Origin: Leishmania mexicana MHOM/GT/2001/U1103
Lineage: Eukaryota; Euglenozoa; Kinetoplastea; Trypanosomatida; Trypanosomatidae
NCBI RefSeq assembly: GCF_000234665.1
Contig: NC_018324.1
Location: 1,353,942-1,417,941, forward strand
Direction of reading: 5' to 3'
DNA length: 64,000 nt
Position numbers and translations under genes: made by a program. Positions 1 through 47,563 of this stretch are shown piece after piece. Positions within the stretch are counted from its first letter, which is position 1; the number at the start of each line of letters is the position of its first letter. The notes under the pieces are model-generated. The model searched no databases, was not told where the DNA came from, and worked only from the letters and a program-made list of their open reading frames with translations.

Positions 1-336
1 TGATACAAGGACGCAAACAAAAGCATCCCACGCACTGCATCACGTCTCTAGCTGTGATACGCGCCGTGCTCCCCATCCACGAAGAGAGAAGAGCACAAGA
101 GAAGAGAACCATCGCCACAGCGGCACACTCATCGGGAGAGAGAATCTACGAGGTGCGCTGGCCCTTGCCTACCTCCACCGCTGAGGCAAACGCGCGCACG
201 GGTGCACGCACACATACGCGCACATGCGCGCCATCTAATCTATCGAAAGGAGTGTGCGCGCACCCACACCGACAGGGGGAAGAAAAGGGAATCAAAAAAA
301 AAGCGCAAGCGTAAAAGGGCAGGAGCTTGAAGCGCG
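1..336. other. Gene-free flank (3' UTR side of the first gene)
   Basis: No ORF here has coding character. It is low-complexity DNA with CA/CG-rich stretches and an A run near 293-302. It lies just downstream of the minus-strand gene ending at 337, so it is probably 3' UTR or intergenic spacer. Confidence 0.6.
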
Positions 337-3300
337 CTACATGTTTGCTGGCACGCTGACTTTCCTTGCACGCTCCCTCGCGCTCGCTGAGCTCGCCTCC
401 GTGCCCGCGACAACAGCACGCTGCCTGTTTGCGTGAGGTGTGAGTTGGCGATCGGAAAGAAGACGTCGAACCGTGTCGACCGCCTCTGTCGACTCCAACT
501 CAACCGCCGTCACCAGCTGAGCGTTGCACCGGATGACCAAGCAACACTCCGCCCGGTGAACCTTGCTCTGGTGAATCACTCCGCTGTTGTAAGCGCGAAG
601 ACCGCACCACACCTCCACCGTGTCCGCCCACCGTATGCACACCTCACACGACGGGTTACTTGCATGGACACTGTTGTTCCCGCTGCTGTTGCTACTGCGT
701 CCTAGCAGCATCGAGGCCCGCGCCAACATGGGCGGGTGCACCTTGTCCAGAGTAATGCGGAAGCAAACTGCCGCCGATGTGGAAGACGACGGAGGCAGCC
801 GCTCAATGCGCAGCCAACGGCGCCCAACACCTCGGCGCGACGCATGGTGCTTCCACACTGCAAGCCCCTGTACCACGCACTGCCTAAAAGCCGAGGAGCT
901 GTTGCTACCGTGTCCGCCGTCAGGCCGCGTGAAACTGCGTTGCCGCGGGCGGCTACGATTGCGGTTGCTATCGTGCGCCTCTTGCAGAGGCAGCGCAGGC
1001 GTTGCGCGGGGGCGAGAGCTCGACGAAGAGGACGAGGACGACCGTGATGAGTGTGTGGGGGCTGGACTATGGAAAAGTGCGCAGCTCTGATGCGGCGGCA
1101 GTGACGACGGCGGCAGCGGGGCGCTGCTCCCAGATGCGACCGAGACAGTGTCCTCCATACACTCCGCGACGGCCGCGCCGGCGGGTGAAGAGACGTGCTG
1201 TGGGCGGCAACTCGACGGGGGCGCAGTGGATGAGCGAAAGCTTCGCTGGGAAGCCGTAGAGTTCTGCGATTTCATCTCAGCCGCAGATTCAGTAGAGGCC
1301 TCCGGTGCGGCAGTCGCATTGCTCCGTAGGCACGAGGACGGCATCACTGAAAGCACGGCGGAGGAGGACATCGGAAACACTGCCGTGCTTAGCCGTCGTC
1401 GCTCATGCACATCGGCGGTAGCACTGCGGCGTGGCTTGACATCGAGAGATGATGAGACGCCGGCAGAGGCAGCAGCCTTTGACCAGAGACTCCTGTTTTG
1501 AGACGGCGGCGGCGGCGCGGACGCTGCTGTGGCTGTGTTCGCAGTACTGCTACCGCTGCTCCTGCTACTGGTGGTGATGATCGCGCCTCCGCCCCGCTGC
1601 GTGGAGGAGGCAGCATGGGCCTCATGGCTGCGTTGCCCAGAGCGCAGAAGCAGCCGGGGCACGAAGGCAGAGGTGGGACGCTGCAGCAGTGCGTGCGTCG
1701 TGGCTGGCGGAAGAATAGAGGGTCGACTGAACGGTTCTGAGTGTGAGGGAGACAACGACGCGGTGGCGAAAAGATGAGGCGGATGCAGCTGTGGTGATAC
1801 ATGAGCGCGCTCGTCGCGCCGCCAATGTGGGAAGAATGCGGTCGTGAACTCTGTGCTGTAGGTCCGTGTCACTGCAGCCGAATCCGCCTTTGCCGGCACC
1901 GTCGTCCGTTCAGGGAGATGGGAGCTCGAATTGGGGTCTAAGGCGCCGAGGGGCGTTCTCTTCCATGATTGCTGCTGCGGCTGTCGTGTATTCCTGCGGT
2001 GCGCATACGAGCCAGGGTCGAGAAACGACTTGGAAGGGTCTGGCTGCCGCATCTGCCAACATGGCGCCCCTTTTGCCGAGTCCTTCGACATTGCCTGAGC
2101 GCTGCCGTCGCACGACGGCGCACGACTGCTGGCCACCGAAGCGGCTGGGGTGCTGTTGCGGCTTTGATACTGACCAGCGAGGGTCCATGGGAGAGTACCC
2201 AGCAGCGAGGTGGCGGCCCACAGCACGGCAGGGTCTGAGTGGGCGTACAGCGACTGCGGCGCGAATGGACGGGGATGAGGATCAGGACGGTTTTCTGCCA
2301 CTGCCTGCGACACCTCCTGGGCCTCCGCCAAGGGGATTTGTCGCAGCACGGAGGACGACTCGTGGCAATGGCGCCTCTGTGAGGAGGTTCCCGCAGTTGA
2401 GACAGGAGAAGAGGTGCGCTTGTCAAACTTCGTAGACTCGAGAAGGCGTCCCTGGACGTTCTGCTGCGTTAGTGGCATCAGCGCGTGCACAGCATCTTCG
2501 AAGCCTTCCCTGTCGCAGCTCTCGGTTTCGCGGCAGCGCGCGGTGCCAGCGAGTGAAGTGCTCAAGTGCGCATTAGCGCTAAAGTCGGCATCCGTGGCGG
2601 GAGGCGGGGAAGGCAGAGGCGAAGGAGGGCCTCGGGGCGAGGTGCCAGCGGAAGATGAGCAGAGACTGGGAGAGATGGAGGGGGCCAGGACGATGGTGCG
2701 CACCTTGCGTGGCGGCCACGGCCCACCTAACGGCGGAGGCGCTGAGCCCGCGGCGGTGGCTGACTTTGGTGGAGGGGGCGGAATGCGTAGCGCACGATCG
2801 ACGCAAACGAGTTTCGGGACATCGCGGCCCTCGGTAGGGTCAACAGCCTCTATCCAGGAAGAGCTGCTTCGGTCTGTACTCGGGGACCTCTCGGCGCGCG
2901 GCCTCGTTGCCGACCGCTGGGGTGGAGAGCGCAGCAGCTGTTGCTGTGCCTCCCCCGCGGCGTCCTCACTTCCCTCAGACCACATTCTCGTCGAGGGGAG
3001 CGGCCTCGTGGGCGTGCGCCGCTCCTTTGCACCGATAAAGCGACCGTTCCCGACGTTGTCGCCCACGCCTTTCCCGCCACTGCTACAGGCGCTTCTGCTC
3101 GTCGTGACGCCCACCACCTCCTCGAGAGGTGCACCCGCTCTGGTGACAGGACCCTCGCAGTGGTCCTCGACGTTATACAGCGATGGTGGGAGCATCACGC
3201 GCGCCGCAGTACGCTGCTGCCGTTGCAGGAGTTGCGGGAGTACCTCGGCAGCGGTGCCTAGCTGCTCATAACGCAGCCGCACCGCCGCGATCCGGTGCGT

Positions 3301-3912
3301 GTCAGAGCCGTCGGAGCACCCCATGAAGCGCAGGTGGAGGTAAAGGCGCACCGCTTCTACGCCTGTCGCAGGCGTAGACGAGCTGATTAGCACGGCGAGA
3401 TGATAGAATGTGCGCAGGGGAACCGTTGTCGTGCACACACCAGCCGCCCCACTCGCAGTCAAATTCCACTCTGTCACCACTACAGGCCGCAGCGAGACCC
3501 CGTCCAGCCGTTGCGCGCTGGTCGCCAGACTTACCACGCAGCGAGTGGGAAAACAGCGGCCATCGACGAAGAGTGGGGTGGCAGAGATGCGCAGCACCGA
3601 CGTCGATGTGGAGGCAAAGAAGGGTGGTCCCAGGTTCGTAATCTCGCACGTGGCGGTGGTCGGACGCGTTCGCACGGATGGGTTCAGCCAGTAGCGCAGC
3701 CCTTCAGCGGTGGGGTTCAGCGCCGCCGAATCGGTCCCCTCGGCTTGCGATGGATGCACCGTGTAGAAGCATGCGTCCGCCCCAGCACCTGTGAAGTGCA
3801 CAAGGCGCTCTAGTGCATCCAAGGAGCAGCCTGGCTCGCAGGCAACGGAGGAGGATGGAGAAGAGAAGAAGGGCGGTGAGAAGTGCTCTGGTGCACAAGA
3901 CTGCAGCTGCAT
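337..3912 (-). CDS. Large Ser/Pro-rich hypothetical protein (1191 aa)
   Basis: I do not recognise a family. The ORF runs from an ATG at 3912 to 337. The first ~220 residues look folded, with alternating hydrophobic stretches typical of beta structure. Residues ~240-1000 are low-complexity: Ser, Pro, Arg and Gln rich with poly-Ser runs, probably disordered. The last ~150 residues are ordered again, with several Cys and Trp residues (for example CEVCIRWADTVEVWCG). No signal peptide or membrane segment is seen. A likely trans-splice acceptor lies 21 nt upstream. The two ordered ends joined by a long disordered linker resemble trypanosomatid-specific scaffold or cytoskeletal proteins, but that is only an impression. 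It is the most promoter-distal gene of the minus-strand unit seen here. Confidence 0.8.
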   Translation of the reverse strand: MQLQSCAPEHFSPPFFSSPSSSVACEPGCSLDALERLVHFTGAGADACFYTVHPSQAEGTDSAALNPTAEGLRYWLNPSVRTRPTTATCEITNLGPPFFASTSTSVLRISATPLFVDGRCFPTRCVVSLATSAQRLDGVSLRPVVVTEWNLTASGAAGVCTTTVPLRTFYHLAVLISSSTPATGVEAVRLYLHLRFMGCSDGSDTHRIAAVRLRYEQLGTAAEVLPQLLQRQQRTAARVMLPPSLYNVEDHCEGPVTRAGAPLEEVVGVTTSRSACSSGGKGVGDNVGNGRFIGAKERRTPTRPLPSTRMWSEGSEDAAGEAQQQLLRSPPQRSATRPRAERSPSTDRSSSSWIEAVDPTEGRDVPKLVCVDRALRIPPPPPKSATAAGSAPPPLGGPWPPRKVRTIVLAPSISPSLCSSSAGTSPRGPPSPLPSPPPATDADFSANAHLSTSLAGTARCRETESCDREGFEDAVHALMPLTQQNVQGRLLESTKFDKRTSSPVSTAGTSSQRRHCHESSSVLRQIPLAEAQEVSQAVAENRPDPHPRPFAPQSLYAHSDPAVLWAATSLLGTLPWTLAGQYQSRNSTPAASVASSRAPSCDGSAQAMSKDSAKGAPCWQMRQPDPSKSFLDPGSYAHRRNTRQPQQQSWKRTPLGALDPNSSSHLPERTTVPAKADSAAVTRTYSTEFTTAFFPHWRRDERAHVSPQLHPPHLFATASLSPSHSEPFSRPSILPPATTHALLQRPTSAFVPRLLLRSGQRSHEAHAASSTQRGGGAIITTSSRSSGSSTANTATAASAPPPPSQNRSLWSKAAASAGVSSSLDVKPRRSATADVHERRRLSTAVFPMSSSAVLSVMPSSCLRSNATAAPEASTESAAEMKSQNSTASQRSFRSSTAPPSSCRPQHVSSPAGAAVAECMEDTVSVASGSSAPLPPSSLPPHQSCALFHSPAPTHSSRSSSSSSSSSRPRATPALPLQEAHDSNRNRSRPRQRSFTRPDGGHGSNSSSAFRQCVVQGLAVWKHHASRRGVGRRWLRIERLPPSSSTSAAVCFRITLDKVHPPMLARASMLLGRSSNSSGNNSVHASNPSCEVCIRWADTVEVWCGLRAYNSGVIHQSKVHRAECCLVIRCNAQLVTAVELESTEAVDTVRRLLSDRQLTPHANRQRAVVAGTEASSASARERARKVSVPANM

Positions 3913-4897
3913 GACTGAGTCGTGTCTTGACTACTTCCCACCCACATACACACAAAGAAAAACGAGACACAGGACAACGGCGGCGACAACGGTGTCAAGC
4001 CTGATGGTGCTGTAGTGTTTCGCGGTTCCTCGTTATGCGATCACGGGTAGGGTGCGCTCTTCGGTGACCGCGCAGTCTACGAGGTAGACGATTTGCGCAT
4101 ATCAGAGGCACAGAAGGGCGAGAAGTCTGCCCGAACGTCAACGTCTGCACAAAAGTGCGCGCGTCTGTGAGCGAGTGAGATGCATCCGGTTGCCACCAAG
4201 GAGCAAAGACAAGGAGCAAAGACGAGGAGCAGTGCAGAGGGGTGTGGCAGTAAGAGATGGTAGAGAGGGCACAGGAGGCTTCGACTTGCTCCGTGCTCTT
4301 CATTCGATATCTGTGTGAGCTCCAGTAACGAGAGCGCAAGGGTGTGCGCGCTGTAGAGCACCAGCACACGAACACATCTGCACGAACGACTCCCACCGCC
4401 CGAGAAACAACAGGGGGCGGCGGAAGGGAAAGGATATGCACCAGCGCAACACTGGAAAGGGAGCGTGCCGCTTGTGGGGAGAAAGAGAGATGTGTAAGTC
4501 GCAAGGCAAAACACGCGCAGCCAAGGCGCTGTTGCTTGGAATCCTTTCCAATGGTGGGCTTTCCTTTCCTTGTCGGTCCTTTTCTTGTCTTTCAAGGTTG
4601 CATGGCAAGACACAGTCACGCTCGCATGAGCATGTGGGAGAGCGAAGAAGGGATGGTGGCATGCTTGTGATCATCAGGCCTCGTCGACGTACACCACTCC
4701 TCTTCCCAGTTACCGACTCATCAAGATCATCGAAAGCGTCTCCCTCAAGGTGAGGTGGGCGAAGAGGAGGGAGGGATCTGTCACATCACTTTAGTCGCCT
4801 GCCCATCAACACCAGTTTCCCTTCCCTGATGCACATACACGCGCAAACAGCACTGCTGAGACTATCTAGGCACCGCTCAGCATGCACATGCCCTGCC
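3913..4897. other. Intergenic/UTR spacer
   Basis: No supported gene. It should hold the 3' UTR of the NDUFAF6-like gene to the right and the 5' UTR of the 1191-aa gene to the left. In minus-strand sense it carries pyrimidine-rich tracts suitable for trans-splicing. Short ORFs on both strands are low-complexity. Confidence 0.6.
3934..3935 (-). promoter_or_regulatory. Candidate spliced-leader acceptor (AG) for the 1191-aa gene
   Basis: In minus-strand sense a T-rich tract (about 3945-3970) is followed by the AG dinucleotide at 3935-3934, 21 nt before the ATG at 3912. No other ATG lies between. This is the expected geometry of a trypanosomatid trans-splicing site. Confidence 0.5.
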
Positions 4898-6790
4898 TCA
4901 GCTCCTCTTCCGCTGTGTCTGGGGAGCGCCTGAGCCGACACCGCTCGCCATCTTGTAGTGCGAGCCGCGGTGCGCGAAGGAGGTGTTGATGTACGGCAGC
5001 GGTGCCGACTCATCCACGAGCCGCTCGATGCTCTGGTACCGCTCCCACTCCCACCGCTTCTTTAGGCGATACCACGTGAAGCCGGCGTTCTCGATGTTGT
5101 GGTCCGCGAACATGGCACTCACGTTGAAGTCACGCCGCTGCAGAAAGCCGAGATAGTAGTTTGCGTAGAGGCACTCCATGACAATCGGCCACGCCTTGGG
5201 CGGAACGTCTTTAGCGCATTTTTGCGCGTGCAGCATCTCGTCCTTGACAATGCACATGACGTCAAAAAGGACCTTGCGCACGGCGCGATCACGAGACGCC
5301 AGAGGAATGTTCTTGAGCAGTCCGAGGTTCACGTGGTTGTCCGCGCAGAGGTCGGCGGGCAGCATCGTGAAGCCGAGGCGCGCGTACTTTTTCCAGAACA
5401 TCACACAATGGTTTGTCAGCCCGGTTGCACGGCCAATGTGGGTCATGAGGTGCTCCGTCGCCTCGTCTTTTATGTGCGTCACCTCAAGCAAGGAGTTAAA
5501 GAAGTAGCCGTAGAACTTGTCGAAGTGGTCGAAGAGCTGCTGCACGTTTCCGGGTTGCTGAATGACGCGCAGGCGGGCATCAGTGAAGCCGCGTACAAAA
5601 GCCTTCGTCATATGCGGGTTGCGCTCCACGGCGGCGGCGAAGGGGCGCAAGACGGGGTGGGAGTCGGTGAACTGCCCCGTGCACATCTTCCGCTTCTCCA
5701 TGATTGCGCCAACGGACTCTTTCCAGAAGATCAGCTTCATACCAGCGCCGGTGCTCTTCATTCCGTGTTGCGAGTGCACCTCGAGCATAGACCACCGAGC
5801 CTTATTCAGCGACATCGCCAGGTTCCACAAGGCGTAGTAGTCGCGCCGCATCGCTTGGTCAGGGTATCCCATCTCGCCAATGCGGTAGTGAAAGAGGTCG
5901 AAGTCACGCAGCTCATCTTCCAGCTTTATGTAATCCACCTCAGCGGAACCGATGGCGGTGCCGGTGGCCTCGGCGCGATCGGCGCTCGCCTCGTTGATGC
6001 GACGCCACATATCCTCCTTGCTCAGCTCGTTCTGTGGGAGGGCGCGGTAGTAGTCTGCAGCCTCCTTGTTGCGCATAACGCGGGAACCGTCTGCCGTAAC
6101 GCGGCTGACACCCTTCGCGCTGTCACTCTGCGGGCATGGGGAGGACGAGAGAGAAGAGGTGGTCGGTCGTGCTGTGACCCCGATCGCCGCTGCTGCTGCC
6201 GCCGCCGGCCTCGCAGCGGATGCCGAGGGTGGGGAGCTCAGCGACTTAGGGTCTGCTGCAAGACTCATTGGGGACTTGCGCGGCGTCACATTCAGCGCTG
6301 CTGGTGGGGCACGACGTGGCAATGATGAGGTATGGGAAGCCGGCTCCTGAGCATGGCGATGCGCTTCGGTACCAGTGTGAGGGGGAGAGGGAAACTTGCC
6401 GGTCATGGCCACCGAAGTCATGTACTCTGCTTGAGCAGCCTGGATAGCGGCCTGGCTGCCGGGCTGCTCGCATGGTAGCACACCCCCGCCGTCGGTTCGG
6501 AAAGTGACATCTGCTTTTTCGTGCGCCGGCTTCACGAAGGCAGAGATGGAGCCCGCATAGACGCCGATGCCCTGGAAGCCTTCACTGAGGCCCATCTCTC
6601 GGGAAAGACGAACGCCTTGTGGTGTTTCTGTCTGCGGTGCTGTGGTGGCAGCAGCCGATGTCTTCGCAGTGGTAAAAGTACAAGAGGGCGGAGAGGAGGC
6701 TGTAGACTGGCGGCGCAGCGCAGCGGGGAAGACAGGGTAGTGCCTCGTCGATACCGCACCAACGGCGCGGGCCGCACGAAAGGATCTCAT
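4898..6790 (-). CDS. NDUFAF6-like protein (squalene/phytoene synthase fold), probably mitochondrial
   Basis: The 630-aa protein starts at the ATG at 6790. Its N terminus is rich in Arg, Ser and Ala (MRSFRAARAVGAVSTRH), as expected for a mitochondrial presequence. Residues ~30-240 are low-complexity. Residues ~295-590 align by eye with NDUFAF6 (C8orf38) of the trans-isoprenyl-diphosphate-synthase family: the order of MKLIFWKESV (351-360), a segment around HIGRATGLTN (451-460), MLPADLC, and the VPPKAWP-to-RRDFNVSAMF end all correspond. The Asp-rich metal-binding motifs of true squalene or phytoene synthases are absent, as in NDUFAF6, so prenyl transfer is unlikely. NDUFAF6 is a matrix assembly factor for respiratory complex I. 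The role here is inferred from family membership. A second complex I assembly-factor-like domain is encoded at 59724-61607. Confidence 0.75.
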   Translation of the reverse strand: MRSFRAARAVGAVSTRHYPVFPAALRRQSTASSPPSCTFTTAKTSAAATTAPQTETPQGVRLSREMGLSEGFQGIGVYAGSISAFVKPAHEKADVTFRTDGGGVLPCEQPGSQAAIQAAQAEYMTSVAMTGKFPSPPHTGTEAHRHAQEPASHTSSLPRRAPPAALNVTPRKSPMSLAADPKSLSSPPSASAARPAAAAAAAIGVTARPTTSSLSSSPCPQSDSAKGVSRVTADGSRVMRNKEAADYYRALPQNELSKEDMWRRINEASADRAEATGTAIGSAEVDYIKLEDELRDFDLFHYRIGEMGYPDQAMRRDYYALWNLAMSLNKARWSMLEVHSQHGMKSTGAGMKLIFWKESVGAIMEKRKMCTGQFTDSHPVLRPFAAAVERNPHMTKAFVRGFTDARLRVIQQPGNVQQLFDHFDKFYGYFFNSLLEVTHIKDEATEHLMTHIGRATGLTNHCVMFWKKYARLGFTMLPADLCADNHVNLGLLKNIPLASRDRAVRKVLFDVMCIVKDEMLHAQKCAKDVPPKAWPIVMECLYANYYLGFLQRRDFNVSAMFADHNIENAGFTWYRLKKRWEWERYQSIERLVDESAPLPYINTSFAHRGSHYKMASGVGSGAPQTQRKRS

Positions 6791-7725
6791 GGGGCGGAGG
6801 GAGGGGGGACGGGGGGCGTCAAACTACACAAGTCGCGGCGATAATCAGCAGGTACACGATAGCGGGTAAAAACAGACGTCTAGGCCACGCGGATGATGAC
6901 GCTGGTGCAACGTGTAATGTCAACAGTGGAGAAAAAAGGAGAAGGGAAGAGAGAGAGGCTGCTGGTGGGCCTTGCACGGAAACCTCTGATGATAGAGACA
7001 TACGTGTGACGATGCGTCCAGCTCCACAGAGCCGACACCGGCGCACGAAAGAGTTTCGTGGCGAACAAGTGCTTTACGACGCCGGCGGAGATTCGGAGGG
7101 GTAGGGGGTGGGGCAGCGAAAGGGATTCGAGAAGAGGTGGATAGAGCTGGTAGAGCTGATAGAGGCCTAGCTCGCGCATGGGACAGTGTTACTTGGGGTG
7201 GGGTTGCACCAAGCGCGGAGAGACTAGGCTTCTTTCCCGGAGCAGCGGTGGAAGGAAAGGTGCAAGTTTCCGGCCCCTCACAGCTGCTGCGGGGAAGGAG
7301 AGACGTGCCGAAGGGAGAAAAGAGAGAAGGAGTGGGATGCGTACACACAAGACATGTCCGGAACAGCTGTATGCTGCCGACATAACTCTCCGGCTTGCTC
7401 TCCCCATTCGCTCCATCACCTTGCTCTTCCATGGCCTGCACAGTCAAGCCATCGCAGCACACAACACACCTTCCTCGTCCTCCTCGCCATAACTCAAGAG
7501 AGGGAGGGGGTGGGGAAAGTTGCCGTTGTTCGCGTAACGAGACCTGCCACAGAGCATCACGCCTGTACGCTTGCGTGAGATAAAAAGCAGAGAGGGAAAG
7601 AGGAATGGCACGCGCTGCAAGCGATGCGGCAGAGGTGCACTGCAGACACAGGGGAAGCGAAAAAGATACGCATGCGCAGAGACACGGACTTGGGGCACGC
7701 AATGTCCGCGCAATGAACGCATGCC
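6791..7725. other. Intergenic/UTR spacer
   Basis: No supported gene. Purine-rich on the plus strand, hence pyrimidine-rich in the transcribed sense. It includes segments around 6925-6960 and 7300-7340 that could serve as polypyrimidine tracts for the gene ending upstream. Confidence 0.55.
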
Positions 7726-8385
7726 TCAGGGCCTTTGCTGCGCACTCGTTGAGTAGCGTGGGCTCTCGGCCGTGTCTCTATTCTGAAGCAGGCACTGCTC
7801 GTCCTTCAACCTCGCGAGCAGCACCTCCGCATCTTGCGGAGTCTGTATGAGTTCAAGAAGCAGATGGGAGGGCACAAGGGACCATAGAAGCGACAGGTCG
7901 CTGTCTGGCGGTGTCAATGGTACAGAGCTAGTCGGCACACCCGCACGCTCAGCGGCACTGCGATAAACTCTGCTGCCACAGACGAATCCGCCACCACGCA
8001 CCTTGTTGCAGTGCCTCTGCTGCAACAGAGCTGCCCGGTAGCGACGCGTAGGGAAGCAGTGTGGACCTATGTGATAGGTGGCGCAGAGTCCACCCCCGCA
8101 CCCGTGTGCCGTGTTGGCGACGCAGGGCGACGTCAGTGAAGTTCCCGCCGCGCGGACACTGGTGATGCCGCGGCTGTTGCGCTGGTATACCGCTGCTTCA
8201 TTAAAGGTGAGTGTCTGAACAACTTTGCGGGGCGTTTTGTTCTGCCGCAGTAAGGCTGCGCATGCGTCGCTACATACGTGCGTGCAAGTGCCTCCCGGGG
8301 AATGAAAAAGCGATGCACAGCGTCTGCACGCTTCAAGCTGCAGTGCGCACAGATCATGCGACGAGCACGAGAAGGCGTTGTCCAT
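7726..8385 (-). CDS. Small Cys-rich protein with a putative zinc-binding N terminus (219 aa)
   Basis: I do not recognise the family. The ATG at 8385 opens a 219-aa ORF. The first 50 residues contain eight Cys (C7, then CRRC and CTHVCSDAC), spaced like a treble-clef or FCS/HIT-type zinc knuckle. A second Cys/His-rich part follows in the middle (TAHGCGGGLC, HIGPHCFP, RHCNKVRGGGFVC). The last ~60 residues are predicted helical and rich in Leu. No signal peptide or membrane segment is visible. The ordered Cys pattern and the absence of simple-sequence bias argue for a real gene. A zinc-dependent nucleic-acid or protein-binding role is inference only. Confidence 0.6.
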   Translation of the reverse strand: MDNAFSCSSHDLCALQLEACRRCASLFHSPGGTCTHVCSDACAALLRQNKTPRKVVQTLTFNEAAVYQRNSRGITSVRAAGTSLTSPCVANTAHGCGGGLCATYHIGPHCFPTRRYRAALLQQRHCNKVRGGGFVCGSRVYRSAAERAGVPTSSVPLTPPDSDLSLLWSLVPSHLLLELIQTPQDAEVLLARLKDEQCLLQNRDTAESPRYSTSAQQRP

Positions 8386-10474
8386 AATGTGCTCTTACGG
8401 GGAGAGGGGTCGAGGAAAGCTCACACGCGATGTAGTGATTAGGAAACCGTACGTGTTCAAAGGAGAGCGCCGAGGCTAATGTTGGCTGCGCGTCACTGAG
8501 TGCGTGCTGGCCGAGAATGCACGTGTGAGACAGCGTGCGTGGGAGTCAGCACGCCGTTTCTTCGCGTATTTCCAATCTTTCGGGCTGCATAAAAGAGCAA
8601 AAATGAGAGATTTCATCGCCGATGCAGCCCAAGGCGCTGCTTAGGGAGTGATAGAGATGATCTTGAGAGGATAGCCGGAGAGAGACACACACATGGGTGG
8701 GGAGTGGGGTGGAGGGAAGTGGAGAAGATAGGGGAAAAAAGTTGCAGGCAATATGGCGACGCACAAGCAGAAGGAAAGCCAAAGCCAAGGGTCAGCGCTG
8801 CAAGAACCCTCCACCACACCACGCCACGCCTCCCTTCATCAGAGAGGGGGTCTCAGACTTGTCCTCATCTCTGTCCGTCACATTATCGGATCGCGGCCAA
8901 TCGGCGTGCCAGCCAAGGAACGGCAAGCTGTTCTTAACCCCCCCCCTTCGTGCAAAGCCTCTCTGTTCGCGTGCACCTCTTCCGAGATGGAGTGATGAGA
9001 ATGAAGGCCGCCAACAGACGCAAGCCCGGCAGGGAGAGGAGGAAAACTCCTCGCAACCGCAAGTAGAGAAGTCATCAAAAGAGAGGGCCAACCAGCCCAA
9101 CAAATGTTGGGCGACCGCGTTTGGAGAGGTGCAGGGATGCAAACAGTATGTGTATTGCAGCCGCGCCGTGCTGGCCGCAGGCGCTCATCACCATTCCGCC
9201 ATAATTGGGGTGGACAAATCGCGCGGCGTCTTTGCTACGCTCGCGGGTAACATGTATCCGCTAAGCAGACGCCTGGGCGAGGGCTAGACCTCGTCCACTC
9301 CCCCCATAGTCGCACTTATCCGTGTTAATGCATCAGCTCTGCATTTCGATTAGGTCCATCTGGGTGTACGCGCCGCCCGTCGTCGGTGCTCCGCCCAGCG
9401 TCGGGGTGAGCAAGGAGGCCCGAAGAAACAACCTGAGCGGTGGCCTGTGCGCTCCCCGACGTAAGCTGCATAGCCGATTGATGTCGGGTCCGCCAGATTG
9501 CGGTGCGTAGGGGTCGGGAGAGGGGTAGCGGGGCACGGCCGAGCACCGGCCTAGAATACATGCAGTAGCCCCTCCTCAATAGCTGCGCTCGAAGTCACCT
9601 ATCCTTCGACTAGCGCTGAGGAGAAAAAGAATGTTGAGGGAGGTTTGTCACCGCCCAGGTCGCATTGCGGCAATCGGAGGTGGCCTTCGCCGACTCGGCC
9701 TTGCGCTTCAGCCGCCGTGGTTCTCAAGTCGTCATCTTGCTTCTCCTTCCCTGCCGTCTGCTGAGTTGCATGTTTGCAAACTATGATGGAGACTATTGTG
9801 CGTGGCGGGTGAGCGGGGCTGCACCACCTCACCGAACACTTCTTGTCTGCCCAGAGGCGTACATGCAGGGAGGAGGTCAGCTAAAAGAGTTTCAGTCCCA
9901 TTCATGTGCACGCACACGACTTCGCACACAATCCTACCTTGCCTTCGGCCCGGCATGGTCGCCCCCCCCCTCTCCATATGAACGCGAGTATTCGTGCTTC
10001 GCTTTGCCCAATCATCGTTCAAACGCCCCTGAGAGGTGTAGCGGCACGCTGTAAGCGTGCACGGTGTGTGCACAACCGCACCACAGAAAAAAAGAAAGCA
10101 AAGAAACAAATATGTGTTCAGAGCGGCTGGCACACGTGTGCGAGGGATGCAGAGCGGCAGAAAGGGGAAAGGGAGGGGGGAATGCGGCCGCGCAGGACAA
10201 GCCAGTAGCGCTTACAATACAAGCACACGTATATGTGGTCGCGTATCTGTGGATATCAGCGTGCACGTCATCGCCTTCCTCCCCCCAAATCCGACCTCCA
10301 TCACAGCAGTTCACGAGGGGACAGAGGCAGGTGTGTTCCATCCTTCATGCAGTCACAAGTGCGAGAGCCCAATAATAGGAGTGTAAAGAGCAGCAGCGCT
10401 ACTGCAGTTTCCCGTGTTCTCATCACGTGGATCGATCAGTGAGGAGTGCCTTCGCACAGTCCAAGCTGCGCCAC
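8386..10474. other. 2.1-kb spacer with a higher-complexity island
   Basis: No supported gene. It is mostly UTR-like sequence with homopolymer runs (C run near 8939, C run near 9963). The part at about 9240-9830 differs: it lacks microsatellites, is mixed and GC-rich, and reads more like degraded non-UTR sequence. See findings. Confidence 0.5.
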
Positions 10475-40115: not shown

Positions 40116-40683
40116 CTCAACCTGGAAAACATGTATCATTATTTTTACCCCTTTCAGTTTATCTTTGCATGTTCTTGAACGTGAAAACTTTTGTGCTGGG
40201 CCTGTTTGGAGAGAGCACCTCTCGTTCATCTTTCCCCCCTTTGTGACATGTGTTATTATTATTGTCCTTACTCTTTCTTTTGTTGCTTGAAGCAGAGTAA
40301 AACGGGGGAAAGAAACATCGGGTATCTACTAGTGGTGACGTATATCAGTTATGTCTTTCTGAGAGGCCTTGAAAGCTGCAATTTTCTTGGACGCGTTCAT
40401 GAGCACTTGTATACGCTATACTTTGCATTTGCGAGCTTTTCCATCTTGAGCTGCATTCACGTTGTGGGCACCTGTGTGTGTGCACGCCGGCTCTTTGAGA
40501 AGGCGATGGTGCCGCTCTCTGTACATAAAATCGGCACTCTTTCTCTTATCCGCTTTTTGCTTCCCGCAATCACTCCTTCACAGGTTCGAAGTACGCATTC
40601 GCGCCACACTCTCATTTTTGCCTATTTCGCGATGCGAAACATACATGAAGCCACTGTATTGCAGTTTAGGTTAAGTGGAAGAG
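40116..40683. other. Intergenic/UTR spacer
   Basis: No supported gene. A 177-aa open frame in this stretch runs into the kinase gene in another frame and has no recognisable domain. T-rich tracts occur at about 40255-40290. Confidence 0.55.
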
Positions 40684-43617
40684 ATGAGCTGCGCCTCAGC
40701 GAGAACACCCATCGAAAAATATGATATACACGATGCTTTCCTGGCCCTGAGTGTCCTGAGGAAGCTACCAGAGTACACGAGGGAGCTGGAAGAGAGCTCT
40801 TCAGAGATGTTGTACCGAATCATTTATAGATCGATTTACGCCGCCCGATGGTACTACCGCCGCTACTCCCGGTATAGGGAATTCGTTCATTTACTCAGCA
40901 CATATACGGAGTGTATTGCTGTGAAATCATTCAACCCTGCACACCGAGTCGCGGAACTACTTGCAGCGCACACTTCACAACTTCATACTCCGCAGCTATG
41001 GCAGCGGCTGCCGCTTCCCCTTGTCGCTTCTCTTCTTCTTGCCGTGATTTTCTGCATTGCGACGGTGATACTTATCAGTATTGGAGAAGATTGCTGTCGA
41101 AAAGGGGATGTTGCTGCGCTGATACTGAGCTGTGTGAGTGTCGTGTGCCTATGTGCCCTGTTTCCACTCATTTATGCATCCCTAAAGTGGCGCGGATACA
41201 GAGGACCGGAGCGGTTTGTGGACTGGATGGTGCGAATGGCCTGTGACAACGCTCAAAACCAAAATTCTTACTACAACCCACTGTCGGACCGAATTGAACT
41301 CACCGAGCAAGCGATAGTCGAGGACACAGATGCGTTCCTTGTTGAAACCGACACTGCCCATCGTAACCGAAGTGCTATCGCGATGCTCTTAACAGAGGCC
41401 ACCGAAGACGAGGGGAGTGTTGTCTTGCGGAGCAGAGGCCTTCCTCCTGCTATGATCGGACTGAACCCCATCTATAGACATATGATAATTATCATGACGG
41501 ACTTTGATGGGAAGGTCGTAATGTGGAGCGATGGCGCGGCTACTTGCTTCGGCTTCAGTGCGCGAGACGTCGAGGGGAACAATATAAATTCTCTTCTCTA
41601 TGGCGAACGATCGGTGGAGCTCTACGCAACAATGACTGAAGCTGCAGTGAAAAACTTGGACCTCTCAGAAAAGGTCCTCACCATGGCACATATGAGTTTG
41701 GGCACACTCTCTATCAGCGCAACAGTGGTTGTCAGCCGAGAGGCCAAATCGAATCGGTCCGTGGGGTTCACTCTCATCGGGTCTGTACGCTCCGATGAGC
41801 TGTCGCAGACGCAGACGGTGCTGCACTCTTTTTTTGTGACAGAACTGTCGCAGCTGTCTGTCAAGGACAGCCAATTTCGACAAATTGTGGACTGCTTGCG
41901 GTGGAAAAACCTGCGCGACCTCTCCGCGCTGGCGAGGGACTGGAGAAGCGCGCACATTCGGCAGCTGCTGTCCGAGGTCATCAAAGGGAGGCAGCGCTAC
42001 GTGAGCGTCGAGGTCGATCCAAAGGTAACCGAATTGCCGCCTATTCTCTGCGACACGGCGGGCGTTACTGCTGTGCTGAATCGCACTTTTGAGCTGTTCT
42101 GCGAAAAAATCAGCGTTCGCGTTGAGCAGAAACGCACGACCAGTGCGGTGTACCAGCTCATTGTAGTTTACCGTCATGACATGTCTGGGCTCAACCGAAA
42201 TACCTTGATGGGCATCACCCGATCTGCAAATGACCTTGGTGGCATTGTAGTCGACTCCCCCGGCACACTAAAGCTGTTGCTGCCCTTCATGGTGAAGGAT
42301 GAGGTAATTCAAGCCTTGAAGCCTCAAGGCGCCGCTGCACAAAAGCCAATCGGACACGACCCCCTCATTGTGCTGCTCTTGGAGAAGAACGCTGTGCACC
42401 GTCACAACATATCTGCCTCCATCTGGAGCTGCGGCCATTCTCTGCGGCTGATTGAGAACGTTCGAAAGGCTTTGCAAGCCATCGAAGGATCGACCGACCT
42501 CGGTTGCGCTATTGTCGACGTCGACGTGAAAGGCTTTGACCGCGTGATCGAGGCACTGCTGGCGAAGCACATCTACATAATCGAAACCTCTGAGGCGCTA
42601 GACGGCGGTGCAAAACGCGGTGATGCCCTTCTGAAGAAGCCGATTTCGAATGAGGCGCTCCATAAGGAGTTAGAGAGGGCCACCTACAAGTGCGAGGAGG
42701 CGAAGCGTGCCGGTGTGGAGCTGCTGAAGCGGCGAGAGGTGTTCGGAAAGGTGCGCAACAGTCCATGGACACAGGGCCGTCTGCTCGGGCGTGGTGGGTG
42801 CGCTGCCGTATACGAGGCGACTTCCACCCTGACGGGCGGAAAAATGGCTGTCAAGATAATCCGCGTTTCTGGCAACTTTGAAGAGCGCATCGACGAGTTT
42901 ATGAATGAGATTGGGATTCTGTGTCAGTTGACACATCCGAACATCATTCATTACTTTTACTGCGAGCGAACCGAGACAACCCTCAACCTCTTCATGGCGA
43001 TGGCTGACCAGGGTACGGTGGCCGACCTTATCAAGCGCTGCCCACAACTGCCCGAGAACCACGTCGCCACCATCATGAAGCAACTTCTGCAAGCGGTCAA
43101 CTACTTGCACGAGTGTGGCATTATCCACCGCGACATTAAACCAGGCAACATGCTCATTTCGCAAGGGCAGCTGAAGCTGTCTGACTTTGGCACAGCCACC
43201 ACGAACGTTCGAGAGGGCACGGTTGGCACCATCAGCTACATGGCCCCAGAGGTCGTTGACGGGAAGCCGAGCGGTAAGGAAAGCGATATCTGGTCGATCG
43301 GCTGCGTCGTCTGCGAGTGTTTGCAGATCAAGCGTTCTGGTGATGGCTTGCTTGGCTATGGCGCACCAGAAGAGTACCCAAGTGATGTATCCGCTCAGGC
43401 GATCGACTTCATCAAGGCCTGCATGCAGAGAAATCCGTCAGAGCGCGCAACAACTGGCACGCTGCTGCTGCACGACTTCATTGTACATCTCGACCAAGAG
43501 GTGTCACAGCTGGCTGAGGTACTAGCCGAGACGTCGCCAAACGACGAGGGGGCAAAGCCACCTAAAGCCCGCAGCAGTTTCAGTGACTCCACCGTCATCA
43601 GCTGGTCCTTCGACTAG
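40684..43617 (+). CDS. Membrane STE11-type protein kinase with PAS and two-component-like domains (977 aa)
   Basis: The first ATG is at 40684 (the frame opens at a GTG, 40675). Residues ~112-133 and ~143-165 are two membrane helices joined by a short loop. Residues ~263-370 resemble a PAS domain (MIIIMTDFDGKVVMWSDGAA). Residues ~452-535 mirror a degenerate HATPase_c fold (LCDTAGVTAVLNRTFELF, then NDLGGIVVDSPGTLKLLLPF). Residues ~560-668 mirror a receiver domain, with a candidate phospho-Asp D612 and a Lys-Pro at 652-653. Residues ~695-936 are a complete kinase: G-loop GRGG, K724, HRD (D817), DFG (834-836), APE (854-856). It resembles the membrane-bound STE11 kinase RDK1 of T. brucei, a repressor of life-cycle differentiation; orthology is my inference. 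It would act as a sensor-linked MAP3K-like enzyme. Confidence 0.88.
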   Translation: MSCASARTPIEKYDIHDAFLALSVLRKLPEYTRELEESSSEMLYRIIYRSIYAARWYYRRYSRYREFVHLLSTYTECIAVKSFNPAHRVAELLAAHTSQLHTPQLWQRLPLPLVASLLLAVIFCIATVILISIGEDCCRKGDVAALILSCVSVVCLCALFPLIYASLKWRGYRGPERFVDWMVRMACDNAQNQNSYYNPLSDRIELTEQAIVEDTDAFLVETDTAHRNRSAIAMLLTEATEDEGSVVLRSRGLPPAMIGLNPIYRHMIIIMTDFDGKVVMWSDGAATCFGFSARDVEGNNINSLLYGERSVELYATMTEAAVKNLDLSEKVLTMAHMSLGTLSISATVVVSREAKSNRSVGFTLIGSVRSDELSQTQTVLHSFFVTELSQLSVKDSQFRQIVDCLRWKNLRDLSALARDWRSAHIRQLLSEVIKGRQRYVSVEVDPKVTELPPILCDTAGVTAVLNRTFELFCEKISVRVEQKRTTSAVYQLIVVYRHDMSGLNRNTLMGITRSANDLGGIVVDSPGTLKLLLPFMVKDEVIQALKPQGAAAQKPIGHDPLIVLLLEKNAVHRHNISASIWSCGHSLRLIENVRKALQAIEGSTDLGCAIVDVDVKGFDRVIEALLAKHIYIIETSEALDGGAKRGDALLKKPISNEALHKELERATYKCEEAKRAGVELLKRREVFGKVRNSPWTQGRLLGRGGCAAVYEATSTLTGGKMAVKIIRVSGNFEERIDEFMNEIGILCQLTHPNIIHYFYCERTETTLNLFMAMADQGTVADLIKRCPQLPENHVATIMKQLLQAVNYLHECGIIHRDIKPGNMLISQGQLKLSDFGTATTNVREGTVGTISYMAPEVVDGKPSGKESDIWSIGCVVCECLQIKRSGDGLLGYGAPEEYPSDVSAQAIDFIKACMQRNPSERATTGTLLLHDFIVHLDQEVSQLAEVLAETSPNDEGAKPPKARSSFSDSTVISWSFD

Positions 43618-44332: not shown

Positions 44333-47300
44333 ATGGTGGTGGGGCAATCAGGGTCAACAGCACAAGGGAGTTCGCCGAGGCTCTCCACGTCGCTGCAGGA
44401 GGCTTTCCTGCGCTACGATCCCAAAGAACGTCGGTGCAGTGCCAATGGACCAGCGGTAGAGGAAGCACGTCCGATGCTGGGGAGCCGATACTTCAACATG
44501 GACCACCTCGCCCTGTGGAAGCCGTCGTTGCTCGCGTCTCTGGGCGAAACATGCCGTCGCGCCGTTTACGTGAACGAGTATCATGCACTTCTGTGTAGTC
44601 GGCGACTGGTTCTGGTGAATAACAAAGGCCGGTACATCGTCTTCCCCCCTTTTTGCGACACTCTGAAGGACGCTTACGTGGAGAGGGTATCCAAGACGTG
44701 CACGCTAGTGCTTGCAGCCGTTGCATCTGGCGTTCACGTGGCCCTTGTTCGGGACTCTGACAGCCGGAAAGCTGATACGCTCCAGAGCACCTTTTGCCCT
44801 ACCGCGTCTGCCGTCGCCTGCATTCACCACTTTGGTAAGAACTTCTACGGCTTGTGCTGTGAGAACTGCAGCGTGGAGGGGTTGGCAATCACGCTGGACA
44901 ACACGGACTCGCTGCACCCTGAGCTGCATGCGAATGTGTTGCCCAGTCGATACGGCTGGGTCCAGGCAGCGTACGACTACCTGTCCCCGAAGAGGTATGT
45001 GCACAGCCTCTTCGACCGGCATAGGGGGTATCTCCTGATGCTCTCCAACCGTAATGTGTCGCTGTGGATGTACAGCGACGAAACTGATCTGCAGCTCGAG
45101 TGCTCTGCCGCGCTTCCCCAGGAGGCGGTTGTAGCGATTGTGCCCCCGTTGCAGGATGAGTATGGAGAGACGCAGGTGGCTGTCCTCATCACCAGCAGCG
45201 GCGGCCGTGTACCGGTGCATTTGCGCACCACGGCAGGCAAGCGCGGAACCTTGCGGTCGCTCTCCGTGGGTGAGTTGCGTGGTCTCCCTAGTGGAGTGAC
45301 GAACACGGTGATCTCACTGGCATGCGCGTGCGATTCGTCGCTGCTTTTGGCGGACCAGCTCACCTCGTCTCTGCTTCTCGTGACTCGTTGCGAGCCGTTT
45401 TGTGAGGCACCTGTCAGTTCCACGACGCACGTTGTCACACAGCACTTCCTAGGCAAGCCTATCTGCGGCGTCGGGGTCGAGAGGAGCGTGTGCGATGGCG
45501 GCAGCTTTCTCACCTTTGTTGTGTACTGCGGGGACTCGATGATTGTGCGTCTGGGCCGCATGCCCCGTGGCCAACTCCTGCAGCGACAATTCGCGGCCTC
45601 CGTCACGAGTGGGATTGATGCGGTCAGCAAGCTCGAGCCGCAGGCGCGGGTGGTCCTTCTCCTTGACGCGGTACTAAGCGGCCTCCCAATCTCGTACCTG
45701 TCACAGTCCCTCGAACCCCTTCTCCGCCCGTGGACGGTGACAGTGTGCGGGGTGCGCCTGTCAGATGGCGCTCGTGGCATCATCCAACATACAATGCGGG
45801 GCTTGAGTGAGCTGTCGCGTTTGTGCTTGTCGTTTCACTACTGGCGACTGACGGAGGAGCTGGCGCAGTCGAGGTCTAGACTGGAGAAGAGTAGCACCAT
45901 TCTTACCGAGGTGCTGAACCGTGGCGGCTGGCTGGATTGCCCCACGCGGCAGAGACTGGAGTGGGACGATGACGTTCTGGTGCGCGCAGACGGCAAGCTG
46001 ACGGACATCAGCGCTGTGGACGCCCAGGCAGAGGTTCTGCAGCTGCTGCTGTCATCTGCGAAGCACGCTACAACGATCGCGTGGCTTTACGACTTGCTCC
46101 TGCAGACCGGCACCACCTATCGATTTCCTGGTCGACTGGAGGACCTACTATGGAGGAGCGACCCGGTAGCGGTGCAAGTGTCGCTGTGCATGGATCTACT
46201 GGCAAGGCACAACAAGGACATCACGGACAAGCTCCTGCAGAAGGAGCACGTGCTGCCGCAGCGCTGCCGCCTCGCCGCGACCCTCCTGTCACTGGTGTTG
46301 GACAAGGCGCTCGAGCCTGTCATGACATATACACGACGGCACATCCTCGACATTGTGCAGTATGATCTTCTCTCGTACACGACGGACCTCCTCGAGTCAA
46401 GCTTCCCCACCTCGCAGCCCCGCATCCGCCTCCTGGTCTACCGCTACCCGCACGATCACAGCGTCTCATCCGACATTTTGTCGATGGTCGAGACCATTTC
46501 TTCAACTGGCGATCTTTACCACACACTGGTGACCATTCTTGGCGACGCGGCGTGCGACAGCGAGCTGAGCTCCGTCCTGCTCGACTGGATGGAGTGCCAC
46601 ACCCTCGCTGACCATCGGATTTTGACGTTCGCGAATGTTGTCGTGGACATGGGACTCTGCGTCGACCCGGCGCACACCTTGACGGGGCGTTTCTTTTCGT
46701 CGATCAAGCAGCAGGCGAACGGAAACGTGCAGCAGGCGGCGCTGCGGTTTGCCGATCTGGCGCGCAGCAATCTGTCTGTACCCCTCGACGGACGACTTCT
46801 CGCCATAGAGCACGCCATCACTGCCGTGCCGTCGGACGACAATCGACTGATTCAGTTCCTGTTGCTGCTGCAGCAGCAGCTGGCCAGTCTCATCGCCGAG
46901 CACTTGGCCGTCGGCAAGGATCTCGTTTTTGCGCGCGGCACCGTGGAGGCGGATCTGGGGGCGCTGCGGGAACACTACGTCAATGAGAACTCTCTCTTCG
47001 AACTGGCTGGACGCTACAAAGTGCTGGGCGGGTGCAGCATCCAGCTTGACTTGCTGAAGATCCACTCAGACTCTCCCGAGCTGCTGATTGCCAATGCGCT
47101 GACCGGTGTGCTGACGTTCCTCAAGGCTGTGGGGCTGTCTGCGCCACAGGCTGTGCAGCGTGTTCTGCGGGAGTACCTCGGCACATTTCAGGCCCCATTG
47201 CCCCTCTTCCCGTTTGTTGAGTTTCTTGCCTTTGATGGCCAATCTCCAGCCCTGGCCATGGACGAGCTGGAGAAGGTCGGCGTGCCGCTGCCCACGATTT

Positions 47301-47563
47301 TTGACACCTTCATGAGCTTGCTGGATGGGCACCGCAATCCGCTTTTTCAGATTGGTGACACGGTGCTGGCGCTGGGGCAGCTGGTGCCGAAGATCAGCCC
47401 TACTGTTCAGCACATCTGCGCAGCACACTTGCTAGAGTGCAGCCGGAGCATGCTAGCAGGAGAGCAGCGCGCCATTGCGTTGACGGAGGAGGATGTGCAC
47501 ACCATCAAACACATCGGAGACGACATGCGGAAGCTATCGCAGGGGAGCCAGACAGCATTCTGA
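44333..47563 (+). CDS. Nup155/Nup170-like nucleoporin (1076 aa)
   Basis: The chain is organised as a beta-propeller (residues ~60-430) followed by an alpha-solenoid to the end, the architecture of Nup155/Nup170 inner-ring nucleoporins. Family-like stretches are LVLAAVASGVHVALVRD, YVHSLFDRHRGYLLMLSNRN and AVVAIVPPLQDEYGETQVAV followed by a Ser-Gly-Gly-Arg turn, which correspond in order to Nup155 blades. T. brucei has an equivalent, Nup144. It would sit in the scaffold of the nuclear pore. No FG repeats, signal peptide or membrane segment are seen. Assignment is by eye and moderately secure; another propeller-solenoid coat protein (for example a vesicle-coat or IFT component) is the main alternative. 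Confidence 0.65.
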   Translation: MVVGQSGSTAQGSSPRLSTSLQEAFLRYDPKERRCSANGPAVEEARPMLGSRYFNMDHLALWKPSLLASLGETCRRAVYVNEYHALLCSRRLVLVNNKGRYIVFPPFCDTLKDAYVERVSKTCTLVLAAVASGVHVALVRDSDSRKADTLQSTFCPTASAVACIHHFGKNFYGLCCENCSVEGLAITLDNTDSLHPELHANVLPSRYGWVQAAYDYLSPKRYVHSLFDRHRGYLLMLSNRNVSLWMYSDETDLQLECSAALPQEAVVAIVPPLQDEYGETQVAVLITSSGGRVPVHLRTTAGKRGTLRSLSVGELRGLPSGVTNTVISLACACDSSLLLADQLTSSLLLVTRCEPFCEAPVSSTTHVVTQHFLGKPICGVGVERSVCDGGSFLTFVVYCGDSMIVRLGRMPRGQLLQRQFAASVTSGIDAVSKLEPQARVVLLLDAVLSGLPISYLSQSLEPLLRPWTVTVCGVRLSDGARGIIQHTMRGLSELSRLCLSFHYWRLTEELAQSRSRLEKSSTILTEVLNRGGWLDCPTRQRLEWDDDVLVRADGKLTDISAVDAQAEVLQLLLSSAKHATTIAWLYDLLLQTGTTYRFPGRLEDLLWRSDPVAVQVSLCMDLLARHNKDITDKLLQKEHVLPQRCRLAATLLSLVLDKALEPVMTYTRRHILDIVQYDLLSYTTDLLESSFPTSQPRIRLLVYRYPHDHSVSSDILSMVETISSTGDLYHTLVTILGDAACDSELSSVLLDWMECHTLADHRILTFANVVVDMGLCVDPAHTLTGRFFSSIKQQANGNVQQAALRFADLARSNLSVPLDGRLLAIEHAITAVPSDDNRLIQFLLLLQQQLASLIAEHLAVGKDLVFARGTVEADLGALREHYVNENSLFELAGRYKVLGGCSIQLDLLKIHSDSPELLIANALTGVLTFLKAVGLSAPQAVQRVLREYLGTFQAPLPLFPFVEFLAFDGQSPALAMDELEKVGVPLPTIFDTFMSLLDGHRNPLFQIGDTVLALGQLVPKISPTVQHICAAHLLECSRSMLAGEQRAIALTEEDVHTIKHIGDDMRKLSQGSQTAF

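What the first reader, a model, noticed from the sequence alone, without database searches (positions are those of the whole stretch)
40684..43617. Two-component-like modules fused to a complete STE11 Ser/Thr kinase
Between two N-terminal membrane helices and a normal kinase domain, the protein contains segments that follow, in order, PAS (~263-370), a histidine-kinase-type ATPase fold (~452-535, ending DLGGIVVDSPGTLKLLLPF) and a receiver domain (~560-668). The ATPase region lacks obvious N, G1 and G2 box residues, yet the receiver-like part keeps a candidate phospho-acceptor D612 at the end of a hydrophobic strand and a Lys-Pro after the last strand. Trypanosomatids are generally considered to lack two-component signalling. 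This could be a hybrid-histidine-kinase remnant whose phosphorelay output was replaced by a MAP3K-type domain. Seen: the residue patterns. Known: the domain families. Inferred: homology and loss of function.
Basis: partly seen in the sequence, partly recalled or inferred. Interest (0 to 1): 0.8.

Follow-up and report, generated by a model that had tools for sequence, protein, structure and literature searches.

The report
Membrane kinase with degenerate two-component cassette
This Leishmania gene makes a membrane-anchored protein kinase that carries, in front of its kinase domain, a worn-down copy of a bacterial-type signalling unit; a similar trypanosome kinase was published in 2021, but this gene seems to belong to a larger family of such fusions.

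Summary

Novelty is limited: Jensen et al. 2021 described this arrangement in T. brucei Tb927.9.3120 (DAK). The gene is not RDK1. It may not be DAK either: a paralogue on contig C26 fits DAK's kinase coordinates better, and no row named T. brucei or T. cruzi came up in three protein searches.

New here: paralogues on C26, C15 and C20 show the same order of domains, with strong to weak support. The C15 one (probably LmjF15.1200) keeps every receiver active-site position. Whole-genome searches found no canonical Response_reg, HisKA or Hpt domain.

The parts
40684..43617 (+). whole coding sequence, 977 aa
   Evidence: homologues of 753-1080 aa
41020..41076 (+). hydrophobic helix 1, residues 113-131
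   Evidence: Kyte-Doolittle 19-residue maximum 3.09
41116..41172 (+). hydrophobic helix 2, residues 145-163
   Evidence: maximum 2.70; two helices in this region in 23 of 24 proteins (P0016, 753 aa with a short N-terminus, has none)
41470..41793 (+). PAS domain, residues about 263-370
   Evidence: Pfam PAS/PAS_9 in 22 of 22 members at E <= 1; NCBIfam sensory_box 23.6 bits, cut-off 22.9; PAS structures
41794..41955 (+). DHp-like helices, residues about 371-424
   Evidence: helices 370-389 and 396-419; H381 is H in 21, Q in 2, T in 1 of 24
41956..42303 (+). histidine-kinase-type ATPase fold without lid, G1 and G2, residues about 425-540
42349..42711 (+). receiver (REC) domain, residues about 556-676
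42382..42387 (+). E567-K568, aligned with CheY D12-D13
   Evidence: E 24 of 24, K 23 and R 1 of 24
42517..42519 (+). D612, aligned with the CheY phospho-acceptor D57
   Evidence: 24 of 24
42586..42588 (+). T635, aligned with CheY T87
   Evidence: 24 of 24
42637..42639 (+). K652, aligned with CheY K109
   Evidence: 24 of 24
42649..42750 (+). long helix 656-689: receiver helix 5 running on to the kinase
   Evidence: AlphaFold2 model
42769..43482 (+). Ser/Thr kinase domain, residues 696-933; K724, D817 and D834 conserved
   Evidence: Pfam 5.9e-58; catalytic residues 22 of 22

Best explanation
The gene encodes a two-helix membrane protein whose PAS-DHp-ATPase-receiver cassette descends from a hybrid histidine kinase and now works as a regulatory arm of the fused STE11-type kinase. 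Shown by computation: the folds, their order, and their conservation across trypanosomatids and bodonids. Inferred: the ATPase fold no longer binds ATP in the usual way (lid, G1 and G2 missing); the receiver is not switched by Asp phosphorylation, because the aligned Asp13 metal ligand is Lys/Arg, and it is held in one state by contacts among K568, D612 and K652; PAS signals or dimer changes pass through the DHp-like helices and receiver, and down the helix 656-689, to release or hold the kinase. This would be a one-chain counterpart of the yeast Ssk1 receiver acting on the MAPKKK Ssk2.
For: Fold matches. Profile match above all shuffles for receiver and ATPase fold. Ordered match of the cassette profile (kinase left out) to the C26 paralogue, E 3.2e-11 in one stretch from PAS to about the first receiver strand. 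NCBIfam's TorS model matches residues 515-621 across the ATPase-receiver joint, E 0.005. Receiver profile against PDB sequences: SdrG receiver E 0.0036 and the AHK5 chain 0.023 are the two best of 8 rows at E <= 10. Within the cassette the receiver has the highest mean majority fraction (0.71 against 0.63-0.69 for PAS, DHp and ATPase and 0.45 for the linker). Kinase catalytic residues kept 22 of 22. Precedents: unphosphorylated Ssk1 activates Ssk2/22 by relieving autoinhibition (PMC3644883, passages); CheY D13K/Y106W is used as a constitutively active form (PMC11528121, passages).
Against: No kinase, binding or phosphorylation data. D612, T635 and K652 would not need to be invariant in a purely structural module, so some receiver chemistry may persist. 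H381 is H in 21 of 24 and could be a displaced phospho-acceptor. The D13K effect is not general: in EpsW, D13K gave no activity (PMC4671073, passages). The model gives no reliable domain arrangement (pTM 0.38). The ATPase profile match covers 45 columns only.
Confidence: 0.66

Rival explanations
1. A still working, phosphorylation-switched receiver: D612 is phosphorylated by an unknown donor and this switches the kinase.
For: D612, T635, K652 and E567 are invariant in 24 of 24 and align with the CheY active site; the paralogue L012 keeps E-D, D, S and K.
Against: The aligned Asp13 is Lys or Arg in 24 of 24. The whole genome has no match to Response_reg, HisKA or Hpt at E <= 0.001, so no canonical donor is visible; HATPase_c has 6 matches, none of them this gene.
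Confidence: 0.17
2. A working hybrid histidine kinase with an unusual His (H381) and ATP site, passing phosphate to D612.
For: H381 is H in 21 of 24, and by eye a His stands at a similar place in L013 (sequence).
Against: No G1 or G2 box or lid; the residue aligned with the N-box Asn (N466) varies among N, T, S and V in the orthologues (sequences, alignment). H381 is Q or T in three members.
Confidence: 0.04
3. The cassette is only a scaffold (dimer or membrane-anchoring module) with no signalling switch.
For: Catalytic boxes are lost; such modules often serve as dimerisers (general knowledge).
Against: Active-site-like residues of the receiver are invariant over the distance from Leishmania to Bodo, more than a bare scaffold would need.
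Confidence: 0.13

Closest known systems
DAK, dual ancestor kinase, T. brucei Tb927.9.3120 (PMC8519429; outline, sections 12 and 15 and passages seen)
   Same: TM helices, PAS, DHp-catalytic-receiver cassette and C-terminal ePK; DHp His reported mutated, receiver Asp present; conserved in T. cruzi, L. major and B. saltans according to the paper.
   Different: Orthology with the window is not settled. DAK's kinase is aa 737-980 (244 aa). Pfam gives 744-987 (244 aa) for paralogue L013, 696-933 (238) for the window and 714-951 (238) for the T. grayi window-type protein. The start alone does not decide: P0008, a window-type protein, starts at 737 by alignment.
LmjF15.1200 (PMC1266030, passages)
   Same: Very large STE kinase with cyclic-nucleotide-binding and PAS domains; probably locus L012, on contig C15 with cNMP_binding, PAS and kinase.
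   Different: No TM helices; long tail after the kinase; the paper's passages do not mention a receiver or HK part.
Yeast Sln1-Ypd1-Ssk1-Ssk2 and S. pombe Mcs4-Wak1 (PMC3644883, passages)
   Same: A receiver acts on a MAPKKK.
   Different: There receiver and MAPKKK are separate proteins and the receiver is phosphorylated by a relay.
HK-ePK fusions such as Dictyostelium DhkG (PMC1420674, passages)
   Same: Histidine kinase and ePK domain on one chain.
   Different: DhkG is catalogued there as a histidine kinase, and the paper says that all 14 Dictyostelium HisKs have a C-terminal receiver; here the cassette looks dead and the ePK is C-terminal. Fungal Rim15 (PAS, kinase, receiver) is a further analogue that I recall and did not check.
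ETR1 and plant phytochromes
   Same: Best structural matches of the ATPase fold and of the PAS-HK block. ETR1 signals to a Raf-like MAP3K, CTR1 (recalled).
   Different: No Ser/Thr kinase on the same chain; different sensor parts (recalled).

Membership tests
Receiver (REC) domain | CheY-like fold | tested here: met
Receiver (REC) domain | phospho-acceptor Asp, Thr/Ser after strand 4, Lys after strand 5 | tested here: met
   D612, T635, K652 align with D57, T87, K109 of CheY; 24 of 24
Receiver (REC) domain | acidic pair that binds Mg2+ (CheY D12, D13) | tested here: not met
   E567 and K568; K 23, R 1 of 24. Hence filed as a receiver-fold domain, not as a phospho-competent receiver.
Receiver (REC) domain | match to Pfam Response_reg | tested here: not met
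   no match for the segment or for P0001
Receiver (REC) domain | phosphorylation changes its output | not testable with these tools
   needs biochemistry
Histidine kinase | Bergerat-type catalytic fold | tested here: met
Histidine kinase | N, G1, G2 boxes and ATP lid | tested here: not met
   not seen in the sequence; position 466, aligned with the N-box Asn, varies among orthologues; no HATPase_c match
Histidine kinase | phospho-acceptor His in DHp | tested here: inconclusive
   H381 is H in 21 of 24 but no H-box pattern surrounds it
DAK (Tb927.9.3120) orthologue group | TM-PAS-DHp-C-R-ePK order | tested here: met
   against PMC8519429
DAK (Tb927.9.3120) orthologue group | orthology to Tb927.9.3120 | tested here: inconclusive
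   no T. brucei sequence at hand; no row named T. brucei or T. cruzi (about 8000 candidates scored in each, several rows unnamed); kinase coordinates fit paralogue L013 better
RDK1 | sensor-like region, then adenylyl-cyclase-like region, before the kinase | tested here: not met
   PAS-HK-receiver found instead; definition from PMC8519429 section 15
STE11-type kinase | active ePK domain | tested here: met
   Pfam 5.9e-58; K724, D817, D834 in 22 of 22
STE11-type kinase | STE11 rather than another STE or ePK family | tested here: inconclusive
   the 60 best PDB rows are mostly STE20-type kinases, MEK1 and PLKs, with one MAP3K (MEKK2) among them; no family tree against named STE families was made

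The most novel reading that the evidence does not exclude
Kinetoplastids carry a family of at least four STE11-type kinases (window, C26, C15, C20:2.94 Mb; MEKK1-like C2 as a fifth whose cassette has decayed), descended from one ancestor in which a hybrid histidine kinase was fused to a MAP3K. In the window type the receiver is locked by a conserved Lys/Arg in its metal site, a natural counterpart of CheY D13K. In the C15 type (cyclic-nucleotide-binding, PAS, HK-like, receiver, kinase) every receiver active-site position is kept, so that Asp phosphorylation may still work there in a genome without a recognisable canonical histidine kinase or Hpt protein.
Probability: 0.3. Interest if true: 0.8.

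Novelty: new member of a known kind. Interest (0 to 1): 0.52.

Why it matters
If right, trypanosomatids did not simply lack two-component parts: they kept them inside MAP3K-type kinases, as switches for a kinase family that is expanded in these parasites. A Leishmania-specific member (LmxM.15.1200, probably L012) is reported to have a loss-of-fitness phenotype in establishing sand fly infection (PMC7618733, passage). The window protein gives two sharp predictions that can be tested in purified domains (no Mg2+-dependent phosphorylation of its receiver; phosphorylation of the C15 receiver), and it would show how a receiver evolves into a fixed regulatory domain.

Tried and rejected
RDK1 as orthologue: rejected on published architecture. 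LmxM.36.1530 as the window gene, suggested by its reported lysosome and flagellum localisation: rejected, it is a NEK kinase (PMC13211308, passages). MEKK1-like C2 (L014) as a cassette carrier: not supported, its receiver-like stretch scores 10.8 and 10.7 against shuffle maxima of 17.5 and 19.3. A mixed MAFFT alignment of paralogue and E. coli receivers placed the active-site residues badly and was not used. A first kinase tree with 22 rows had badly cut domains for L013 and L018 and gave weak support (36/71) for the group, with L023 next to it; the second used best domains and dropped 4 of 22 rows for long branches (L017, L023, L025, L026). Direction of transfer (bacterial or eukaryotic source of the cassette) could not be decided: the best PDB sequence matches are one bacterial and one plant receiver, both weak. 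All three protein searches went to the window family, so the paralogues have no orthologue alignments.

Results against my reading: of paralogue receivers against the window receiver profile, L013 (16.1, shuffle maximum 27.7) and L016 (18.9, maximum 20.9) do not exceed shuffles; only L012 does (20.7, maximum 16.7). Against E. coli receivers L012 (24.6, maximum 16.8), L016 (28.3, maximum 21.8) and L013 (20.1, maximum 16.1) do, in 50 shuffles each, with hhalign probabilities of only 22.7, 46.4 and 5.5. In one search the best stretches of L012 and L016 are their PAS parts. The ATPase part of L013 alone finds no match (score 12.4).

Full report
WHAT IS THERE. The window lies in a 32.0 Mb genome (G000, contig C20:1353942-1417941). 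The frame 40675-43617 (+) gives a 977-aa protein from the first ATG at 40684. It has two hydrophobic helices (113-131, 145-163), PAS (Pfam 267-321), and a kinase domain at 696-933 (5.9e-58) with K724, D817 and D834 conserved in 22 of 22 aligned members.

HOMOLOGUES. Three protein searches (about 8000 candidates scored in each) gave 23 further proteins: Leishmania, Porcisia, Leptomonas, Strigomonas, Angomonas, Trypanosoma grayi, T. theileri, T. melophagium, Bodo saltans, and unnamed ones. One source calls a member 'CheY-like chemotaxis protein/PAS domain-containing protein' (P0009), so an automatic pipeline has seen the receiver. No row is named T. brucei or T. cruzi. E567, D612, D614, T635, S636 and K652 are identical in all 24; position 568 is K in 23 and R in 1.

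SEQUENCE PROFILES. hhalign of 16 of the 24 receiver segments against 10 E. coli receivers: Prob 94.2, score 46.3, 111 columns, against a maximum of 19.1 in 100 column-shuffled controls. The printed alignment sets E567-K568 against CheY D12-D13, D612 against D57, T635 against T87 and K652 against K109. The ATPase part scores 27.3 over 45 columns, shuffle maximum 17.9 of 100. Against PDB sequences the receiver profile finds the SdrG receiver (0.0036) and the AHK5 chain (0.023) as the two best of 8 rows. NCBIfam's TorS model spans the ATPase-receiver joint at 515-621 (E 0.005). Pfam Response_reg and HATPase_c give no match, so the domains are real but diverged.

STATE OF THE PARTS. In the ATPase fold I see no G1 or G2 box; only a short stretch separates the G1 position from the 'LGG' strand, so the ATP lid is missing; position 466, aligned with the N-box Asn, varies among N, T, S and V. 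H381 in the first DHp-like helix is H in 21 of 24 but lies in no H-box pattern. In the receiver, the acceptor Asp, the Thr and the Lys are kept, while the Asp13 metal ligand is basic in 24 of 24. CheY D13K/Y106W is used as a constitutively active form (PMC11528121, passages), whereas the equivalent change in EpsW gave no activity (PMC4671073, passages). Receiver helix 5 runs as one predicted helix, 656-689, to the kinase.

GENOME CONTEXT. In the whole genome, Response_reg, HisKA and Hpt have no match at E <= 0.001 (the controls ring in 12, 12 and 8 of 14 genomes). HATPase_c has 6 matches, none of them the window gene. PAS (PF00989) has 4 matches over the cut-off, and three of them lie in the paralogues described next; the window PAS is not among the 4.

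PARALOGUES. A search with P0001 gave 48 places. I fetched 15 further loci. With the cassette profile (kinase left out) against 214 proteins (36 E. coli, 178 Leishmania ORFs of at least 200 aa), the best after the window itself are L013 on C26 (3.2e-11, one stretch from PAS to about the first receiver strand), L012 on C15 (2e-5), E. coli TorS (9.7e-5) and L016 on C20:2.94 Mb (0.0081); the next is 1.1. None of the other 12 fetched loci (L014 and 11 more) came below E 1. L012 and L016 have cNMP_binding and PAS domains before the cassette; L013 has two hydrophobic helices. Aligned with CheY, L012 keeps E-D, D, S and K. L014 (C2), perhaps the MEKK1 gene, shows no significant receiver. In a kinase tree of 18 rows (4 long ones dropped) the window family, L012, L013, L016 and L014 lie on one side of a branch with 95/95 support, in 94% of 200 bootstraps; with 22 rows and poorer cuts support was weak.

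LITERATURE. Jensen et al. 2021 (PMC8519429; outline, sections 12 and 15 and passages seen) found a DHp-catalytic-receiver cassette, PAS and TM helices in Tb927.9.3120, named it DAK, and reported the tagged protein in the ER. They note the mutated DHp His and the retained receiver Asp. It is the one paper holding 'dual ancestor kinase' or 'Tb927.9.3120'. Parsons et al. 2005 (PMC1266030, passages) described LmjF15.1200 with cyclic-nucleotide-binding and PAS domains and no T. brucei orthologue; this fits L012. Searches for two-component or receiver terms with trypanosomatids listed no other paper that I could see describing this family; they cover open-licence PubMed Central only, and of the 36 papers, 15 were listed.

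IS THE WINDOW GENE DAK? Open. For a separate paralogue: DAK's kinase (737-980, 244 aa) equals L013's Pfam span (744-987, 244 aa) and differs from the window type (238 aa in Leishmania and T. grayi); and no T. brucei or T. cruzi row came up for the window type. Against: P0008 of the window type also starts at 737, the database may lack or hide those species, and both types share the order of domains. The M3 peptidase at C26:549942, which I recall as LmjF.26.1570, would put L013 near LmxM.26.1730, a kinase reported in lysosome and flagellum together with LmxM.02.0570 (PMC7902614, passage); this identification rests on recall.

MECHANISM. Most likely a cis-regulatory arm: PAS and membrane helices sense, a dead HK core dimerises and transmits, and a receiver held in one state by K568, D612 and K652 docks on or releases the kinase. 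Shown: folds, order, conservation. Inferred: everything about activity. The nearest tested logic is Ssk1, whose unphosphorylated receiver activates Ssk2 by relieving autoinhibition (PMC3644883, passages).

VERDICT.

Noticed in passing
L012 (C15:429500-439000), ORF 2609-9433 (-); receiver 6893-7261 (-): Very large kinase with cNMP-binding, PAS, HK-like and receiver-like parts; the receiver keeps E-D, D, S and K at the CheY positions. Probably LmjF15.1200. Perhaps the most interesting member of the family.
   Followed up: partly
L013 (C26:590500-599500), ORF 2341-5415 (+): 1025-aa paralogue with two hydrophobic helices, PAS, HK-like and receiver-like parts and a C-terminal kinase; may be the true DAK orthologue.
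   Followed up: partly
L016 (C20:2937500-2947000), ORF 98-7816 (+), open at its 5' end in the locus: Second cNMP-binding, PAS, HK-like, receiver-like kinase, with long low-complexity inserts; receiver has A-D, D, no Lys.
   Followed up: partly
L014 (C2:222500-232000), ORF 4234-8508 (-): Two-helix kinase, perhaps the MEKK1 orthologue (LmxM.02.0570); groups with the cassette kinases by kinase tree but shows no significant receiver.
   Followed up: partly
G000:C29:1208315-1208554 (L035): The one PAS match over cut-off in the genome outside these kinases, in a 656-aa frame; perhaps the PAS-PGK (recalled).
   Followed up: no
window 36.0-38.0 kb: The long ORFs are mostly on the minus strand up to about 37.6 kb and mostly on the plus strand after about 38.0 kb, as at a divergent strand-switch region; the kinase gene would be near the start of the rightward gene array.
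   Followed up: no
window 44333-47563 (+): 1076-aa ORF directly downstream of the kinase gene, without a Pfam match at E <= 0.001.
   Followed up: no
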